From assembly GCA_001871075.1 (NCBI GenBank), contig MNUP01000050.1:1-10736 (forward strand): DNA of 10,736 nt, given 5' to 3'. Numbering within the stretch: the first letter of the stretch is position 1; the number at the start of each line of letters is the position of its first letter. Positions 772-9,904 of the stretch are shown here, one piece after another. Source of the DNA: Candidatus Desantisbacteria bacterium CG1_02_49_89 (GTDB taxonomy: Bacteria; Desantisbacteria; UBA1551). Under the pieces are notes generated by a model. It saw only the letters and a list, made by a program, of their open reading frames with translations. It was not told the DNA's origin and searched no databases. The position numbers and the translations under genes are program-made.

Positions 772-1032
772 ATGTATTATGTTTATGTGCTAAAAAGTAG
801 AAGTATAAAGCGTAGTTATGTAGGATGCTCAAATAATCCAGCAGAACGTTTAAAAGCCCATAATTCAGGTTTGGTGCAATCCACTAAAAACGGACGGCCC
901 TGGCGGATTATTTATACTGAAGAATTAGATTCTTATGCGGAAGCTCGTCGTCGTGAGCATTATTTTAAAACTGGCGGCGGCCGTAGAAGAATAAAAAGGA
1001 TCTTGGAAGGATTGTCCACCCGTATCACCTAA
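772..1032 (+). CDS. Small GIY-YIG nuclease-superfamily protein
   Basis: This 86-residue protein is a single GIY-YIG domain. Residues 3-5 (YVY) and 16-18 (YVG) form the two short motifs that name the family; R26 in ERLKAHNSG is the usual catalytic arginine and E62 in EARRREHYFK the usual metal-binding glutamate. These stand-alone domains are related to UvrC and homing endonucleases, but the cellular role of the small versions is poorly defined. The ATG follows only a weak Shine-Dalgarno (AGGAT), and a good promoter sits at 676-703. The stop codon TAA (1030-1032) lies in the loop side of a perfect 7-bp hairpin (1024-1039), and a dense hairpin cluster and tRNA-Ser follow, so the extreme C-terminus (LSTRIT) may be encoded by repeat sequence rather than by the conserved domain. 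Confidence 0.85.
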   Translation: MYYVYVLKSRSIKRSYVGCSNNPAERLKAHNSGLVQSTKNGRPWRIIYTEELDSYAEARRREHYFKTGGGRRRIKRILEGLSTRIT

Positions 1033-1235
1033 AGGTGATCGGGCGAGACCTCATTAAAAAATATTTCGGGTTGGGATCCGCCCGTTCCGCCCACTTCGTG
1101 GTCGAGACTGGGCGAGATCTCGCCCACTTGAAACCGGAGTAACCAGTTGAGTGGATGGGTGTCCGCCCATATCGTTTGCCTTTGGCAGAACGATTGGGCG
1201 AGACCTCGCCCGTTCGCCCGATGGCGAAACGGGCG
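1024..1235. repeat. Cluster of palindromes/hairpins between the GIY-YIG gene and tRNA-Ser
   Basis: At least five inverted repeats crowd these 212 bases. They are ATCACCT/AGGTGAT (1024-1039), CCAC-TTC-GTGG (1091-1101), the 16-nt perfect palindrome GGGCGAGATCTCGCCC (1110-1125), a long near-perfect hairpin at 1164-1200 (CGCCCA, ATCGTT and TGCC pairing with GGCA, AACGAT and TGGGCG), and CGCCCGTTCGCC/GGCGAAACGGGCG (1207-1235). GGGCGAGACCTC occurs twice (1041-1052 and 1196-1207) and its variant GGGCGAGATCTC once. The last hairpin ends two bases before the tRNA-Ser 5' base. Long reverse-strand ORFs here are by-products of the high GC content and palindromy. Confidence 0.75.
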
Positions 1236-1236
1236 G

Positions 1237-1323
1237 GGAGAGGTGGCCGAGCGGTTGATGGCACCGGTCTTGAAAACCGGCATTGACGCAAGTCAATCGT
1301 GAGTTCGAATCTCACCCTCTCCG
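1237..1323 (+). tRNA. tRNA-Ser(UGA)
   Basis: An 87-nt class II cloverleaf. The acceptor arm GGAGAGG (1237-1243) pairs with CCTCTCC (1316-1322) and the discriminator base is G1323, as expected for serine. The anticodon stem CCGGT/ACCGG (1264-1268/1276-1280) holds loop CTTGAAA with anticodon TGA at 1271-1273, reading UCA. The long variable arm has the stem TTGAC-GCAA-GTCAA. The T arm is GTGAG-TTCGAAT-CTCAC (1299-1315). CCA is not encoded. A 12-bp hairpin starts at the very next base. Confidence 0.97.
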
Positions 1324-1400
1324 TGTTCCTTCTGCTGCGCAGAAGGAACAGAGTCCCGATGTTACATCGGGATGGTCTATTGCTCCATTTTCTATTTTCA
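1324..1400. repeat. tRNA-linked double hairpin, copy 1
   Basis: A perfect 12-bp inverted repeat TGTTCCTTCTGC/GCAGAAGGAACA (1324-1350, 3-nt loop) begins directly after the tRNA-Ser discriminator base. It is followed by AGAG and a second hairpin TCCCGATG-TTA-CATCGGGA (1354-1372), then GGTCTATTGCTCC and TCTATTTTCA. From 1350 to 1400 it closely matches 4813-4862 downstream of tRNA-Arg; the first hairpin has the same position but a different sequence. Neither hairpin is followed by a T run on the + strand, so a simple terminator is unlikely. Confidence 0.8.
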
Positions 1401-1415
1401 GATATTTTTTCAGCT

Positions 1416-1549
1416 AATACAAACGCATTAAGTAACTTGTCGTTGCGAGGAGTGAAGCGATGAAGCAATTTCGGTTTTAACGATGAGATTGCCACACTCA
1501 CTTCGTTCGTTCGCAATGACACTATCAGGTTATTTTGTGCGTTTGTATT
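1416..1549. mobile_element. MITE-like palindromic element
   Basis: The 12-nt sequence AATACAAACGCA (1416-1427) is perfectly inverted as TGCGTTTGTATT (1538-1549). Inside lies an 82-nt imperfect palindrome (1439-1520) whose left arm GTCGTTGCGAGGAGTGAAGC is complementary, with mismatches, to the right arm ending GTTCGTTCGCAATGAC. This inner sequence is of a type ('TTGCGAG...GAAGCAAT') known to me as a widespread dispersed repeat in many bacterial genomes. There is no transposase and no clear target-site duplication. Its right end is about 25 bp before the ribosome binding site of the next gene. Confidence 0.6.
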
Positions 1550-1585
1550 TGTCAGTTACTTGTTACTGTATCTAAAGGAGTATCC

Positions 1586-2710
1586 ATGGCTGATTATAAA
1601 AAAGTAATGAAGACCGTGCTGGTAGTGCTGCTTTTGCTGACAGGGCTTCTGATGGCTATGGGCCCGTATATCACGAAATACACGCAGGGGAAATACTATA
1701 AGAAGTATTACGGAGCCGAGGAGATCAATCCCGCTGACCTGAAAGATCATCCCGCTTCCTTCCGCATCAAAGGTATGACCCGGATCTCCTTCGATAAGCA
1801 ATACTTTCAGCCAGCGGCGCTGCAGATGATCGCCGCGAAACACGGCGTCAGGCAGGGCATCGGTTATTTTAATTTCCTAATGGGTTTCACATACGGAATG
1901 TTTTACAGGCCTGACATGCCCGCGCCCATGTTCACTAATGATCCCATACTGGGTTTCAAATATGCCGCGCCGTTTCTGGGCCTTAAAATGAAATTTCTTA
2001 TCACGGATGACAGGGATGTTTTCCTGAAAGCGGTCAAATTCCACGTTTCCAGGGACCATCCGGTCGTGATCGAGGTGGACGCGGGCGCCCTGCGCGGCGA
2101 AACCGTTTTTATCGCGCACCCGGAGGTTATCGCCGGGTACAGCGAAAAAGGATTTGAATACATGGAGGCGGACGGCAGGGTCAGGCCGGGAGCCGGCGTT
2201 CTTACGGCAACCAGCGACTCGATGGTCGCGGCGATGCTCAGCCAGTCAAAGGCGTTCATGAGCCCCCGCAAGTTCTCCATCATTATTTTTGAGCCGGCAG
2301 AAGAAAAGAAAACAGACCTGGGGGAAGTTTTCAAGCAGAACGGCGAGTCGCTCATAGGTAAGAAATACGGGGTCATAAGCGTTATGGGCACCGGTTCTTT
2401 CGCCCTGCAGCAGTTTTCAGCCGCGTTGAAGAAGAAGGGTATGTCAGGCGGCCTTTCTTTGATCGAGCCCGCCCCTTACATGCGCGCGGACAACGCTTCC
2501 TTCCTGCTTGAATATTTTCCGGCAGACGAAGACATAAAAAATGCCGCGGCCCAGCTGAAAGAGGCGGGCGCGAAATACGTGAAGGTGCTGGAGCTTTTAA
2601 AATCCGCTGACAAAGCCAGGGCTGAAGAAGCTTCAGGGCTGGTGAACGAGGCTGCCGCGCTTGAAAAAAGCGCCGGTGAGATCTTCCTGAAGAAAGCGGG
2701 TGTAAAATGA
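1586..2710 (+). CDS. Membrane-anchored BtrH_N/DUF4872-like protein
   Basis: I choose the ATG at 1586 because AAAGGAG (1574-1580) precedes it; an upstream in-frame TTG at 1535 lies within the palindromic element. The 374-residue protein has a hydrophobic anchor at about residues 9-25 behind a short lysine-containing N-terminus, so most of it is probably outside the cytoplasm. The middle contains GVRQGIGYFNFLMGFTYGMF, a PILGFKYAAPFLGLK stretch and DHPVVIEVDAGALRGETVFIAH...VIAGYSEKG. This order (G-F-x-Y early, 'PVVIEVD', 'AHPEVIAGYS') resembles the BtrH_N fold of butirosin-type acyltransferases and cysteine-peptidase relatives, and the helical C-terminus resembles DUF4872. I see no cysteine in the catalytic position, so activity is doubtful. 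It overlaps the next gene by 4 bp (ATGA), implying translational coupling. The family call is by pattern only. Confidence 0.6.
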   Translation: MADYKKVMKTVLVVLLLLTGLLMAMGPYITKYTQGKYYKKYYGAEEINPADLKDHPASFRIKGMTRISFDKQYFQPAALQMIAAKHGVRQGIGYFNFLMGFTYGMFYRPDMPAPMFTNDPILGFKYAAPFLGLKMKFLITDDRDVFLKAVKFHVSRDHPVVIEVDAGALRGETVFIAHPEVIAGYSEKGFEYMEADGRVRPGAGVLTATSDSMVAAMLSQSKAFMSPRKFSIIIFEPAEEKKTDLGEVFKQNGESLIGKKYGVISVMGTGSFALQQFSAALKKKGMSGGLSLIEPAPYMRADNASFLLEYFPADEDIKNAAAQLKEAGAKYVKVLELLKSADKARAEEASGLVNEAAALEKSAGEIFLKKAGVK

Positions 2711-3735
2711 GCTATGAAAGAGGGTGGGCCGCGCTTAATTTAAAAATGCCGGATACCATACCGCACACTGAATACTGCTCGCACCCCGGTCTGGTAAGGC
2801 ACATTACGGGGATCGACCCGAACGTTGACGGCAGCGCCTGGCGCAAGTTCATGGAGATCACGGACTACGACATACTGTGGTATTCAAACGACGGGCCTGA
2901 GTGGAAAGGCCGGTTGACAAATATGGGCCACGCGGTGTTCGCGGAAGGCGGCACGGATTACAATTCCGACATCCAATGCCCGTTCAAAACCCCTGAGGAC
3001 GTGCTGGATTTTGATCCTGTTAAGGAATACGGCGTCCCGGATATCGACGAAAGGGCGAAGTTTTTTACAGACATATGGAAGGCGGAACAGGGCGCGAGCC
3101 CGTTCCTTGTATGCCCGGGCGGGTATTACAGGACGGTTGTTTCGGCGTGCATAGCGGCTTTCGGCTGGGAGATGTTCCTTTCCGCGGCTCCGCTGGATTA
3201 CGAAAAATTCGGCAGGGTGCTGGACGGGTTCGCTGAGATCACCATGGCGAACGTGAAGGCGTGGGCGAAGACGGATATCAAATTCTTTATCCAGCACGAT
3301 GATATGGTCTGGACCGAAGGGGCGATATTCCACCCGGAGTGGTACAGGAAATACGTATTCCCGAAATATAAGAAATTCTGGAAGGTCCTGAAAGACGCAG
3401 GGAAGATAGTGCTCTTCTGCTCTGACGGCAATTTTACCGAGTTTGTGGATGACATAGCGGGCGCGGGGGCTGACGGGTTCATATTCGAGCCGCTGACCGA
3501 CCTGAAATATATCGTTGAGAAATACGGGAAAACGAAAGTGATAGTGGGGAACATAGATACAAGGGCGCTTACTTTCGGCACCAAAGAAGCCGTGAAGGCG
3601 GAGGTAGAGCGCTGCTATGACCTCGGGAGGAAATGCCCGGGTTATTTCTTCGCGGTGGGTAACCACATCCCGCACAATATACCTCTTGAGAACGCGCTGT
3701 ATTATCTTGAACTTATCCGGGACCGGCGCAGGTAA
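2707..3735 (+). CDS. URO-D-fold protein (uroporphyrinogen decarboxylase / corrinoid methyltransferase superfamily)
   Basis: This 342-residue protein spans the usual URO-D TIM-barrel length. Diagnostic segments are FIQHDDMVWTEGAIFHPEWY (195-213 region), KIVLFCSDGNFTEFVDDIAG (233-252), the GADGFIFEPLTDLKYI strand-loop, VIVGNIDTRALTFGTKEAV and the C-terminal GNHIPHNIPLENALYYLELI. These match the methyltransferase branch (MtaA/CmuA-like) better than haem-pathway HemE, whose N-terminal arginine motif is absent. In zinc methyltransferases the ligands are His-x-Cys and a later Cys; here the His position appears to be Leu236, Cys238 is kept, and the later Cys position is Asn319. Substrate and metal use are therefore uncertain. 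The start codon overlaps the stop of the preceding gene. DUF1638, a frequent companion of such proteins, follows after about 120 bp. Confidence 0.8.
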   Translation: MSYERGWAALNLKMPDTIPHTEYCSHPGLVRHITGIDPNVDGSAWRKFMEITDYDILWYSNDGPEWKGRLTNMGHAVFAEGGTDYNSDIQCPFKTPEDVLDFDPVKEYGVPDIDERAKFFTDIWKAEQGASPFLVCPGGYYRTVVSACIAAFGWEMFLSAAPLDYEKFGRVLDGFAEITMANVKAWAKTDIKFFIQHDDMVWTEGAIFHPEWYRKYVFPKYKKFWKVLKDAGKIVLFCSDGNFTEFVDDIAGAGADGFIFEPLTDLKYIVEKYGKTKVIVGNIDTRALTFGTKEAVKAEVERCYDLGRKCPGYFFAVGNHIPHNIPLENALYYLELIRDRRR

Positions 3736-3762
3736 TTGCAGATCGCCGGCTTACAAGCTTAT

Positions 3763-3787
3763 AAGTTTACAAGTTTACAAAGTTTAC
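3763..3787. repeat. AAGTTTAC short tandem repeat
   Basis: AAGTTTAC occurs at 3763-3770, 3771-3778 and 3780-3787 in the gap between the URO-D-fold and DUF1638 genes. The rest of the gap (to 3854) has ATCCGT twice and no evident promoter or terminator. Confidence 0.7.
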
Positions 3788-3854
3788 AAAGTAAATACTG
3801 TTTTATCTGTATGAATTCGTTCTACTAATCCGTATGCATCCGTGGATTTAAAAA

Positions 3855-4457
3855 ATGAGGCTGACAATAATTGCCTGCGAGATCCTGTTCAGGGAAATTT
3901 CCTGGTGCGTTTCGCGGTCAGAAAATGTGGTTGACGTCAGGTTCCTGCGCAAGGGCCTGCACGACCTGGGCGAGAAGGAGATGGTTGCCGCGCTCCAGAA
4001 AGAAATAGATTCGGTTGAACCTGAAAGGAGCGAGGCAATACTGCTTGGTTACGGGCTGTGCAATAACGGGATAAGGGGCCTGCGATCGAAAAAGTCGAAG
4101 CTGGTTGTGCCAAGGGCGCATGACTGCATCACCCTGCTGCTCGGTTCAAAGGAACGCTACAGGCAGTATTTTGACGCGAACCCCGGGACGTATTTCAGGT
4201 CAACAGGCTGGGCTGAAAGGGATGTTCCCGCAGAGCAGAAAGGCGCGTATACCCAGCTGGGGTTGCTGCCGACTTATGAAGAATATGTAAAAAAATACGG
4301 AGAGGACAACGCGAAATTCCTGATGGAAACGATGGGTTCCTGGGAGAAAAACTACAGCAGGATGGCATACGTGGACATGGGGATACCGGAATTCCCGGAT
4401 TACAGCGAGAACGCAAAAAAAGAAGCGGAAGAAAAAAATGGCGGTTTGAAACAGTGA
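3855..4457 (+). CDS. DUF1638 protein, frame broken near the C-terminus
   Basis: Two hundred residues carry the DUF1638 pattern: ACEIL near the N-terminus (7-11), LH at 35-36, ILLGYGLCNNG (62-72), LVVPRAHDCITLLLGS (83-98) and GTYFRSTGW (111-119). The conserved Cys and His residues could form a metal or corrinoid-related site, but the family has no established reaction; it often neighbours URO-D-fold methyltransferases and corrinoid proteins in anaerobes, as here with the gene just upstream. No clear Shine-Dalgarno precedes the ATG. The frame ends as EEKNGGLKQ, whereas the expected family C-terminus continues in the -1 frame from 4439 to 4582. The break coincides with seven A at 4432-4438 (another A7 run is at 4415-4421). 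It may be a sequencing or assembly error, a real mutation, or slippage. Confidence 0.8.
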   Translation: MRLTIIACEILFREISWCVSRSENVVDVRFLRKGLHDLGEKEMVAALQKEIDSVEPERSEAILLGYGLCNNGIRGLRSKKSKLVVPRAHDCITLLLGSKERYRQYFDANPGTYFRSTGWAERDVPAEQKGAYTQLGLLPTYEEYVKKYGEDNAKFLMETMGSWEKNYSRMAYVDMGIPEFPDYSENAKKEAEEKNGGLKQ

Positions 4458-4582
4458 AGGGCGACATTGGGCTGATAAAAAGGCTTATTGACGGCGGGTG
4501 GGACAGTAAAGATTTCCTTGTTCTGGACCCCGGCGAAAAGATCACGGCAACGTACGATGAAGGCATAATCAGTAAAACTTAA
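4439..4582 (+). pseudogene. Out-of-frame C-terminal part of the DUF1638 gene
   Basis: Read from TGG at 4439, this frame gives WRFETVKGDIGLIKRLIDGG, then WDSKDFLVLDPGEKITATYD and EGIISKT before TAA. The pattern 'W-x-[FY]-E-x-x-x-GD-x-x-L-[IL]-x-x-L-[IV]-x-G-x-W-x-x-x-DFLV-x-x-PG-x-x-I-x-A-T-Y-D' is what normally closes DUF1638 proteins. Adding one A to the A7 run (4432-4438) joins it seamlessly to the upstream 195 residues as ...AEEKKWRFE. No start codon of its own produces this peptide. Confidence 0.8.
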
Positions 4583-4606
4583 TTGCAAATTTCAAATTGC
4601 AAATTT
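4581..4606. repeat. AATTGCAAATTT direct repeat
   Basis: Two perfect copies of AATTGCAAATTT lie at 4581-4592 and 4595-4606, immediately at the end of the DUF1638 remnant; related A/T-rich words follow to 4620. Confidence 0.7.
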
Positions 4607-4627
4607 TAAAAGTCAAATTTTTACTTG

Positions 4628-4649
4628 TCCCGAAGGGATCCCTTTGGGA
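4628..4649. repeat. Palindrome TCCCGAAGGGA/TCCCTTTGGGA
   Basis: A 22-nt palindrome with one G-U pair and no loop spacer. Its core AAGGGATCCCTT and the following TTGGGATAAA recur in the larger palindrome at 9785-9836, so the two belong to one repeat family. Confidence 0.7.
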
Positions 4650-4669
4650 TAAACTCTGTAAACTTTTTT

Positions 4670-4701
4670 ACTCTGACACTTTGATACTCTGACTCTTTGA
4701 C
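4670..4701. repeat. 16-nt tandem repeat upstream of tRNA-Arg
   Basis: ACTCTGACACTTTGAT (4670-4685) is followed at once by ACTCTGACTCTTTGAC (4686-4701), 14 of 16 identical. It ends 14 bp before tRNA-Arg. Confidence 0.7.
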
Positions 4702-4715
4702 ACTGTTTTTATGGT

Positions 4716-4790
4716 GCGCCTGTAGCTCAATTGGATCAGAGCATTTGCCTACGGAGCAAAAGGCTGGGCGTTCGAGTCGCCCCAGGCGCA
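4716..4790 (+). tRNA. tRNA-Arg(ACG)
   Basis: A 75-nt cloverleaf. The acceptor GCGCCTG (4716-4722) pairs with CAGGCGC (4783-4789), with discriminator A4790. The anticodon stem TTTGC/GCAAA (4744-4748/4756-4760) holds loop CTACGGA with anticodon ACG at 4751-4753. The T arm is GGGCG-TTCGAGT-CGCCC (4766-4782). CCA is not encoded. A34 must be deaminated to inosine by TadA, whose gene lies at 6757-7194. A perfect hairpin begins at the next base. Confidence 0.97.
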
Positions 4791-4862
4791 TTTTTCCCCG
4801 TTGGGGAAAAATAGAGTCCCGATGTAACATCGGGACGGTCTATTCTCTATTCTCTATTTTCA
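4791..4862. repeat. tRNA-linked double hairpin, copy 2
   Basis: TTTTTCCCC (4791-4799) and GGGGAAAAA (4803-4811) form a perfect 9-bp hairpin directly after tRNA-Arg. Then AGAG and TCCCGATG-TAA-CATCGGGA (4817-4835) follow, with GGTCTATTCTCTA and TCTATTTTCA. Arrangement and sequence from 4813 onward match copy 1 after tRNA-Ser. It ends about 10 bp before the sppA ribosome binding site. Confidence 0.8.
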
Positions 4863-4880
4863 TTTTTTATTGGAGGGAAC

Positions 4881-5885
4881 ATGAAAAAATTATCAAAAAG
4901 AACGTGGGCGTGGATCATTATACTTGTCGTGGTGGCAGCGGGCGTTGTCCTGAATAACATCAAGGGCAAAGACAGCGTATCATCGGCAAGCTCTATGGTA
5001 AAGAAGCCCGTTAAAGTGCTGACAGGCCGCAAGTTCTACAAGCAGAGGTATGTTACCGGTGACGAAGCCGCCCCCGACAAAGTGGCGATAATAAACATAG
5101 TGGGTGAGATCTCAAATTCCAGGTATGGCCCTTCATACCGCAGGGGAATGGTTGACGAGCTAATAGACCAGATGAAAGAGGCCGAAAAAGACAACAGCAT
5201 AAAGGCGGTCCTGCTGGACATCAATTCTCCGGGAGGCCCGATAATCGACGCTGACCTTGTTTACGAGAAGATCAAAAAATTAGCGGAAAAAAAGACGGTT
5301 GTGGCTTACCTGGACAGGACCGCTGCCTCGGGCGGTTATTATATAGCCTGCGCAGCGAAGAAAATAGTCTCTCATCCGCTTACGCTCACGGGTAATATAG
5401 GCGTGATAATGGATTATATGAACCTCAGCAACCTGTTGGGTAAAAAACTCGGTGTTGAGATGGGCGTGATAAAGAGCGGCAGGTACAAGGACATAGGTTC
5501 CCCGTACCGCTCAATGGATGTAAGCGAAAGGAAAATGCTGCAGGGCCTGGTGGATGAAGCGCACAGCAGGTTTGTTCAGGTTGTTTCCGCAGGCCGCAAT
5601 ATCCCGGAAAGCAAACTCGCGAACATTGCTGACGGAAGGATATTCTCGGGCGCGCAGGCAAAGAAGGCGGGCCTTGTGGACGAGCTGGGCAGCCAGGAGG
5701 ACGCGATAGAGATAACCAAGAACCTGTGCGGCCTGAAAAAAGCCCAGGTTATTGAGTATTATACAACGCCAAAATTAAGGGACTGGTTGTTAGGAAAATT
5801 TGAAGATACTAAAATAAAGGGAACTTTCAGCAGCCTGCCTGAGCCGGCATTGAAATACCTGTGGATGCCAAGCGTAGAACGCTAG
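4881..5885 (+). CDS. sppA: Signal peptide peptidase SppA, S49 family (short form)
   Basis: The 334-residue protein starts with a lysine-rich segment and a transmembrane helix at about residues 9-25, so the catalytic domain is on the outer face of the cytoplasmic membrane. It cleaves leftover signal peptides within the membrane using a Ser-Lys dyad. The nucleophile is Ser150 in TAASGGYYIA and the general base Lys203 in SGRYKDIGSPYR, nearly the same spacing as in Bacillus SppA; NSPGG (115-119) is the conserved strand-turn that helps form the active site, and GNIGVI follows at 171-176. The length fits the single-domain SppA type that works as an oligomer, not the double-length E. coli type. GGAGG (4872-4876) sits just before the ATG. 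Its 5' leader overlaps the repeat that follows tRNA-Arg, so it may be cotranscribed with that tRNA. Confidence 0.93.
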   Translation: MKKLSKRTWAWIIILVVVAAGVVLNNIKGKDSVSSASSMVKKPVKVLTGRKFYKQRYVTGDEAAPDKVAIINIVGEISNSRYGPSYRRGMVDELIDQMKEAEKDNSIKAVLLDINSPGGPIIDADLVYEKIKKLAEKKTVVAYLDRTAASGGYYIACAAKKIVSHPLTLTGNIGVIMDYMNLSNLLGKKLGVEMGVIKSGRYKDIGSPYRSMDVSERKMLQGLVDEAHSRFVQVVSAGRNIPESKLANIADGRIFSGAQAKKAGLVDELGSQEDAIEITKNLCGLKKAQVIEYYTTPKLRDWLLGKFEDTKIKGTFSSLPEPALKYLWMPSVER

Positions 5886-9836: not shown

Positions 9837-9848
9837 ATAGGGGATGGG

Positions 9849-9885
9849 GTCCGATGCCCCGATGTTCATCGGGGATGCGGACTCT
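9849..9885. repeat. Hairpin related to the tRNA-linked repeat, reverse orientation
   Basis: An inner stem CCCCGATG-TT-CATCGGGG (9857-9874) sits inside an outer stem GTCCG/CGGAC (9849-9853/9878-9882). Read on the - strand it gives AGAGTCC...CCCGATG..ACATCGGG, the same words in the same order as the repeats at 1350 and 4813. It lies just before the ribosome binding site (GGAGGAG, 9888-9894) of the next gene and could affect its translation. Confidence 0.65.
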
Positions 9886-9904
9886 TCGGAGGAGATTTAT
9901 TCAG

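What the first reader, a model, noticed from the sequence alone, without database searches (positions are those of the whole stretch)
1237..4862. Hairpins start at the base after each tRNA and share a ~50-nt downstream repeat
After both tRNA-Ser (ends 1323) and tRNA-Arg (ends 4790), a perfect hairpin begins at the next base, 12 bp at 1324-1350 and 9 bp at 4791-4811. The two first hairpins differ in sequence, but each is followed by the same block AGAG-TCCCGATG-T(T/A)A-CATCGGGA-(T/C)GGTCTATT...TCTATTTTCA (1350-1400 and 4813-4862). Conserved position with diverged stem sequence suggests selection on structure, for example a 3' processing or stability signal for tRNAs lacking encoded CCA, or an element that inserts at tRNA 3' ends.
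Basis: seen in the sequence. Interest (0 to 1): 0.72.

Follow-up and report, generated by a model that had tools for sequence, protein, structure and literature searches.

The report
Mobile-looking hairpin element at tRNA ends
Most tRNA genes in this bacterium, and many in distantly related uncultured bacteria, are followed flush with the end of the mature tRNA by the same two-hairpin DNA element, which looks like a small mobile repeat that settles at tRNA ends and which I could not find described.

Summary
In the window's genome, 31 of 43 tRNA genes have a perfect hairpin of at least 8 bp starting within a few bases of the tRNA 3' end (shuffled flanks 0, 5' ends 0). The downstream block occurs 41 times, always on the tRNA strand 3' of a tRNA or tmRNA.

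The window copies are the short form of one element: hairpin 1 (free sequence, perfect pairing), AGA, stem A, a GG bulge, TCT, pyrimidine-rich tail. Stem A covaries. The same architecture abuts tRNAs or tmRNA in MAGs of Firestonebacteria, Elusimicrobia, Omnitrophota and other families. Two species of one genus differ: hairpins at 28 of 44 against 5 of 38 tRNAs, with compact empty sites.

Best explanation: a non-autonomous palindromic mobile element (REP/MITE-like) that inserts flush with the 3' end of tRNA-like genes. A processing or stability signal remains a rival, but the CCA-less idea fails, because CCA-encoding tRNAs carry it too. RAYT and integron links were tested and not supported. The mobilising enzyme is unknown. 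No match in Rfam or in the papers searched.

The parts
1237..1323 (+). tRNA-Ser(tga), no encoded CCA; the gene that the first copy abuts
   Evidence: ARAGORN and Rfam RF00005
1324..1350 (+). hairpin 1 of copy 1, 12 bp, loop TGC, starts at the base after the discriminator
   Evidence: sequence; fold z -5.1 with downstream part
1350..1378 (+). core of copy 1, short form: AGA 1350-1352 (A1350 shared with hairpin 1), stem A 1353-1361 with 1365-1373, loop TTA, GG bulge 1374-1375, TCT 1376-1378
   Evidence: sequence; covariation of the same stem in 26 copies
1376..1400 (+). conserved pyrimidine-rich tail of copy 1 (TCTATTGCTCCATTTTCTATTTTCA)
   Evidence: 41 genome-wide sites, all 3' of tRNA or tmRNA
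4716..4790 (+). tRNA-Arg(acg), no encoded CCA; the gene that the second copy abuts
   Evidence: Rfam RF00005; ARAGORN gives 4715-4791
4791..4811 (+). hairpin 1 of copy 2, 9 bp (10 with A4790-T4812), loop GTT
   Evidence: sequence; fold z -4.3
4813..4841 (+). core of copy 2, short form: AGA 4813-4815, stem A 4816-4824 with 4828-4836, loop TAA, GG bulge 4837-4838, TCT 4839-4841
   Evidence: sequence; D5
4839..4862 (+). conserved pyrimidine-rich tail of copy 2
   Evidence: sequence

Best explanation
The two blocks are copies of a short (about 75-110 bp) non-autonomous palindromic mobile element that inserts flush with the 3' end of tRNA-like genes, after the discriminator or after CCA. Shown: the anatomy (hairpin 1 with interchangeable sequence but perfect pairing; AGA, stem A, GG bulge, TCT; pyrimidine-rich tail; in the long form a purine-rich loop complementary to the tail), its exclusive tRNA/tmRNA placement in the window's genome, its patchy occurrence across phyla and its presence/absence within a genus. 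Inferred: the hairpins are recognised, on DNA or single-stranded DNA, by an unidentified enzyme, and the folded tRNA-shaped gene is the target, which would explain placement at the end of the acceptor stem on either strand of tmRNA. Inside tRNA operons the copies enlarge a compact spacer to about 110 nt, so they are probably transcribed and read through.
For: 31 of 43 tRNAs against 0 in shuffled flanks and 0 at 5' ends; 41 of 41 tail sites 3' of tRNA or tmRNA. Patchy spread: named MAGs of three phyla, 12 of 285 Omnitrophota with 25 sites against 2 control sites, 7 of 290 genomes by covariance model, absent from G001 of the same order. Same genus: 28 of 44 against 5 of 38 tRNAs; Thr-Tyr spacer 121 nt with the element against 1 nt without; Gly-Thr 111/30, Pro-His 114/28. 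tmRNA: 3' side in G000 (called by ARAGORN); outward on the 5' side in G245 and by eye on both sides in G061. Same core inside a repeat with terminal inverted repeats at stop codons in G310. Tandem copies at several tRNAs.
Against: No mobilising enzyme found: Y1 transposase genes are present but not next to copies. No clear target-site duplication. Polarity in G373/G513 is not settled by an outgroup. Copies within one genome differ considerably, so there is no young burst of identical copies. Perfect pairing in diverged copies also fits selection for a function.
Confidence: 0.6

Rival explanations
1. A functional tRNA trailer: the +1 hairpin and stem A guide or pace 3' maturation (RNase Z, 3' exonucleases, RNase III) or protect the precursor, and are maintained by selection on structure at each tRNA; spread by recombination between tRNA loci.
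For: Exact placement at the mature end, perfect hairpin 1 with 21 different arms in 31 tRNAs, covarying stem A, tmRNA carries it too, hairpin 1 is replaced but kept at tRNAs where both sister species have it.
Against: A sister species mostly lacks it, 12 tRNAs of the own genome lack the +1 hairpin, cassettes displace it from Leu-taa and Ser-gga without replacement, copies sit on the 5' side of tmRNA, and protein-gene ends carry the core in G310 and G559.
Confidence: 0.24
2. By-product of replication: tRNA ends are hot spots for template switching, which makes and perfects palindromes; the hairpins are not moved by an enzyme and have no function.
For: In many copies hairpin 1 takes in an inverted copy of the tRNA end (TGGC against GCCA); other palindromes replace or nest in its stems.
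Against: Does not explain the core sequence shared across phyla or the near-constant spacer of about 110 nt in G373.
Confidence: 0.09
3. Intrinsic transcription terminators of tRNA genes.
For: Hairpin followed by a T-rich tail; the scan calls a terminator-like site at 4816-4836.
Against: No more terminator-like sites than in shuffles (3 against 4.7); the tail has no continuous T run; the element lies between closely spaced tRNAs of conserved operons.
Confidence: 0.07

Closest known systems
REP / REPIN repeats mobilised by RAYT (Y1, TnpA_REP) transposases
   Same: Short bulged palindromes, intergenic, sometimes supplying a stop codon to the flanking gene (reported for GTAG REPs in PMC3733652); non-autonomous
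   Different: Flush with tRNA and tmRNA ends, two hairpins in direct order, no GTAG tag at tRNA copies, not linked to the Y1 genes of the same genomes
MITEs (small transposons with terminal inverted repeats)
   Same: In G310 the core lies in a repeat with terminal inverted repeats starting at a TA
   Different: tRNA copies have no terminal inverted repeats and no visible target duplication
Integron gene cassettes with attC sites
   Same: A structured, sequence-variable palindrome directly after a gene end
   Different: No RYYYAAC...GTTRRRY boxes in 66 flanks tested, no integron integrase above cut-off in G000, tRNA order is conserved rather than reshuffled
RtT repeats of the E. coli tyrT operon (from memory)
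   Same: Repeats 3' of a tRNA that include a piece of its 3' end, as in the tandem copies here
   Different: One operon; here genome-wide, two hairpins, several phyla. Recalled, not tested.

Membership tests
REP/RAYT repeats | Palindromic repeat near, or mobilised by, a Y1 (PF01797) transposase of the same genome | tested here: not met
   Y1 genes in 7 of 7 genomes but the core in only 1 of 30 loci around them for the full motif, that one being the tRNA-Ser copy of G059
REP/RAYT repeats | GTAG or related tetranucleotide at the 5' foot of the hairpin | tested here: not met
   tRNA copies start directly at the tRNA end; only the G310 and G559 protein-gene copies start with TAG
MITE | Terminal inverted repeats | tested here: inconclusive
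   Seen by eye in G310, not at tRNA copies
Integron attC | Inverted core boxes RYYYAAC and GTTRRRY at the ends | tested here: not met
   0 of 33 flanks in G373/G513 and 0 of 33 in G000
Integron attC | Integron integrase in the genome | tested here: inconclusive
   TIGR02249 above cut-off in G373, G513 and G061 but not in G000, G310, G559, G246, G059; no core at the three integrase loci read
Intrinsic terminator | G+C-rich hairpin followed at once by a T run, enriched over chance | tested here: not met
   3 sites against 4.7 expected in 1000-5000
Known structured RNA family (Rfam 15) | Match at the gathering score | tested here: not met
   Only tRNA matches in the window; only tRNA at gathering level in five loci
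Mobile element in general | Presence and absence at the same site in related genomes | tested here: met
   G373 against G513, same genus; direction of change not proven
Mobile element in general | Movement shown, or the mobilising enzyme known | not testable with these tools
   Uncultured genomes, no strain series

The most novel reading that the evidence does not exclude
A new class of mobile element that uses the mature 3' end of tRNA and tmRNA as its address, either by reading the folded tRNA-shaped single-stranded gene or through an RNA-level step at the tRNA 3' end. It has spread over several bacterial phyla and has rebuilt most tRNA spacers of some genomes, possibly with a domesticated role in tRNA maturation.
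Probability: 0.3. Interest if true: 0.85.

Novelty: new variant of a known kind. Interest (0 to 1): 0.62.

Why it matters
tRNA genes are classic docking sites for large integrating elements, which bring a copy of the tRNA end with them. Here a tiny structured repeat sits flush with the mature end of most tRNAs of a genome, lies between tRNAs inside operons, and recurs at tRNA and tmRNA ends in distant phyla. It makes testable whether folded tRNA genes or tRNA 3' ends are themselves recognised as insertion targets, and what a strong hairpin at +1 does to tRNA 3' maturation.

Tried and rejected
RAYT/Y1 transposase linkage: genes present, not linked. Integron attC: no core boxes; integrase absent from the main carrier. 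Pseudoknot between the purine-rich loop and the tail: complementarity is strong, but a copy's own tail pairs no better than another copy's tail (p 0.69 in G000, 0.09 elsewhere), so it is not claimed. Rfam: nothing but tRNA. Virus contigs: two core patterns, no hit. The CCCGATG-NN-CATCGGG hits with a 2-nt loop belong to other dispersed palindromes, not tRNA-linked where read. The hit in a Bacillota MAG (L086) has no tRNA near it and looks like chance. Literature searches found no description of such an element; one paper on REPs was consulted.

Full report
What was checked. tRNA-Ser ends at 1323 and a 12-bp perfect hairpin occupies 1324-1350. tRNA-Arg ends at 4790 and a 9-bp hairpin occupies 4791-4811, with the discriminator A4790 able to add one pair. 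Both elements fold with z-scores of -5.1 and -4.3 against dinucleotide shuffles.

Genome-wide test. The genome (2.48 Mb, 150 contigs) has 43 tRNA genes. Reading all their flanks shows the same arrangement after most of them. A perfect stem of at least 8 bp starting from -6 to +3 of the called tRNA end occurs at 31 of 43 tRNAs, at none of 860 shuffled flanks (mononucleotide shuffles) and at none of the 5' ends. There are 21 different 5' arms among the 31 stems. The tail pattern GGTCYATTN{1,2}TCNATT is found 41 times against 0 for the reversed control. All 41 lie 3' of a tRNA or tmRNA on its strand, 34 within 180 nt and all within 430 nt. Several of the farther ones are tandem copies or have been displaced by a cassette.

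Anatomy. After hairpin 1 comes AGA, then stem A, a GG bulge, TCT and a pyrimidine-rich tail ending TATTTTCA. The window copies are a short form in which stem A is GTCCCGATG-TNA-CATCGGGAC (G-U closing in copy 1). The long form reads AGAGCAATNGAGCAATAGAGAATAGA...ATTGCGGTCTATTGCTCTATTTTC and has a purine-rich loop complementary to the tail. Stem A covaries: in 26 copies from several phyla, 90% of cells are paired with 17 two-sided changes against 4.8 in shuffles, and slid controls fall to 23-47% paired. A copy's own arms pair better than swapped arms in G000 and in the other genomes (0 of 20,000 permutations each). The loop-tail complementarity is not copy-specific and is left unexplained.

Distribution. 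An exact pattern found one copy each in MAGs titled Firestonebacteria, Elusimicrobia and Omnitrophica. Reading tRNA flanks of those genomes showed the full element after tRNA-Met, Ser and Thr (and a partial one after Gly), after tRNA-Val, and after tRNA-Asp, respectively. A scan of 285 Omnitrophota genomes gave hits in 12, 25 sites against 2 control sites. A covariance model found it in 7 of 290 genomes at E below 1e-4, with only 16 candidates scored per genome. Copies read in G373, G513, G351 and G025 follow a tRNA with hairpin 1 at its CCA end. tmRNA carries it on the 3' side in G000 and facing outward on the 5' side in G245, both with ARAGORN calls. By eye, G061 has it on both sides of a tmRNA-like gene next to an smpB-like reading frame, and G064 after a tmRNA-like 3' end. 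In G310 the core lies inside a repeat with terminal inverted repeats at the ends of protein genes, where the repeat usually supplies the TAG stop; in G559 dispersed copies also begin with TAG. G001, the only other genome held of the window's phylum, has none.

Presence and absence in one genus. G373 and G513 share a genus label. The +1 hairpin is at 28 of 44 and 5 of 38 tRNAs; these are counts of hairpins, and a few in G373 (Phe, for example) look like ordinary terminators or other repeats. tRNA order is conserved but spacers differ: Thr-Tyr 121 against 1 nt, Gly-Thr 111 against 30, Lys-Glu 111 against 15, Pro-His 114 against 28, Val-Asp 110 against 57; the Lys-Glu spacer of G373 has the hairpin without the standard core. 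A 1-nt spacer is hard to reach by decay, which favours insertion in G373, but there is no outgroup. At tRNAs where both genomes carry the element, hairpin 1 is often replaced wholesale (Ala-cgc, Ala-ggc, Val-gac, Met, Ser-cga) while the core stays similar. These tRNAs encode CCA, and in several ending GCCA the CCA lies inside the stem.

Interpretation. Cross-phylum patchiness, presence/absence within a genus, a flush junction and the two-sided placement around tmRNA fit a structured mobile element whose target is the end of a tRNA-shaped gene. Perfect pairing with free sequence fits recognition of structure, selection on the precursor RNA, or palindrome correction in replication; the data do not separate these. 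A terminator role is unlikely between closely packed tRNAs and gets no support from the scan. A role tied to missing CCA is refuted by the CCA-encoding carriers. The enzyme is not identified: Y1 transposases are present but unlinked, and integron recombination is not supported. PF05635 four-helix-bundle genes occur in all eight genomes searched and in none of 14 controls, and lie directly after an element-bearing tRNA or tmRNA in G000, G246, G247 and G373. That is a lead, not a result.

Limits. The flanks come from draft metagenome assemblies. Searches of relatives sampled part of each group. The literature check covers open-licence full texts only, so 'not described' means not found there.

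Noticed in passing
L327 (G000 C81, from 19745 to about 20120): A GIY-YIG-like reading frame sits between tRNA-Ser(gga) and a displaced copy of the element, in a cassette with ends TACTACGC and GCGTAGTCAG and followed by a 14-15 nt duplicate of the tRNA 3' end.
   Followed up: partly
L063, L065, L066, L067 (G000); L111 (G001): Small cassettes after tRNAs that end in a duplicate of the tRNA 3' end, several with the shared right end GGAGAAGAAATCCC and an inverted copy of the T-arm near the left end.
   Followed up: partly
L250, L266, L269, L276 and other G513 tRNA flanks: A repeat containing the reverse complement of the preceding tRNA's own T-arm (for example GGACTTGAACGGG-like stretches after tRNA-Cys), followed by GAGAAAACGGGAGTTTTC.
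   Followed up: no
L283, L295, L300, L312: PF05635 four-helix-bundle (23S rRNA intervening-sequence type) genes directly after element-bearing tRNA-Ser or tmRNA in G246, G247, G373 and G000.
   Followed up: partly
L088, L114, L118 (G060, Elusimicrobia): Minihelix-like repeats beside tRNAs that repeat the two strands of the tRNA acceptor stem around a short hairpin.
   Followed up: no
L337, L338, L339 (G513, G061, G373): Integron integrases above the NCBIfam cut-off in three carrier genomes; in G061 a tRNA-Pro(cgg) lies within about 2 kb.
   Followed up: partly
L225, L238, L241, L246 (G373): A second long repeat after the +1 hairpin at tRNAs without the standard core: GTGTAATTAGTAATTTGTATTTTG...CAAATTACAAACTACACACA.
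   Followed up: no
L152-L160 (G310), L193-L220 (G559): The core sits in dispersed repeats that start at protein-gene stop codons and usually supply the TAG.
   Followed up: partly
window 9842-9890; L075-L085: Another dispersed palindrome family (CCCGATG-NN-CATCGGG within GGTCCGATG...CATCGGACC or GGCGAGACCTCGCC contexts), not tRNA-linked where read.
   Followed up: partly
window 772-1032: A GIY-YIG-like reading frame (MYYVYVLKSRSIKRSYVGCSNNPAERL...) lies about 200 bp upstream of tRNA-Ser, with GGGCGAGACCTCGCCC palindromes between; identified by eye from the sequence.
   Followed up: no
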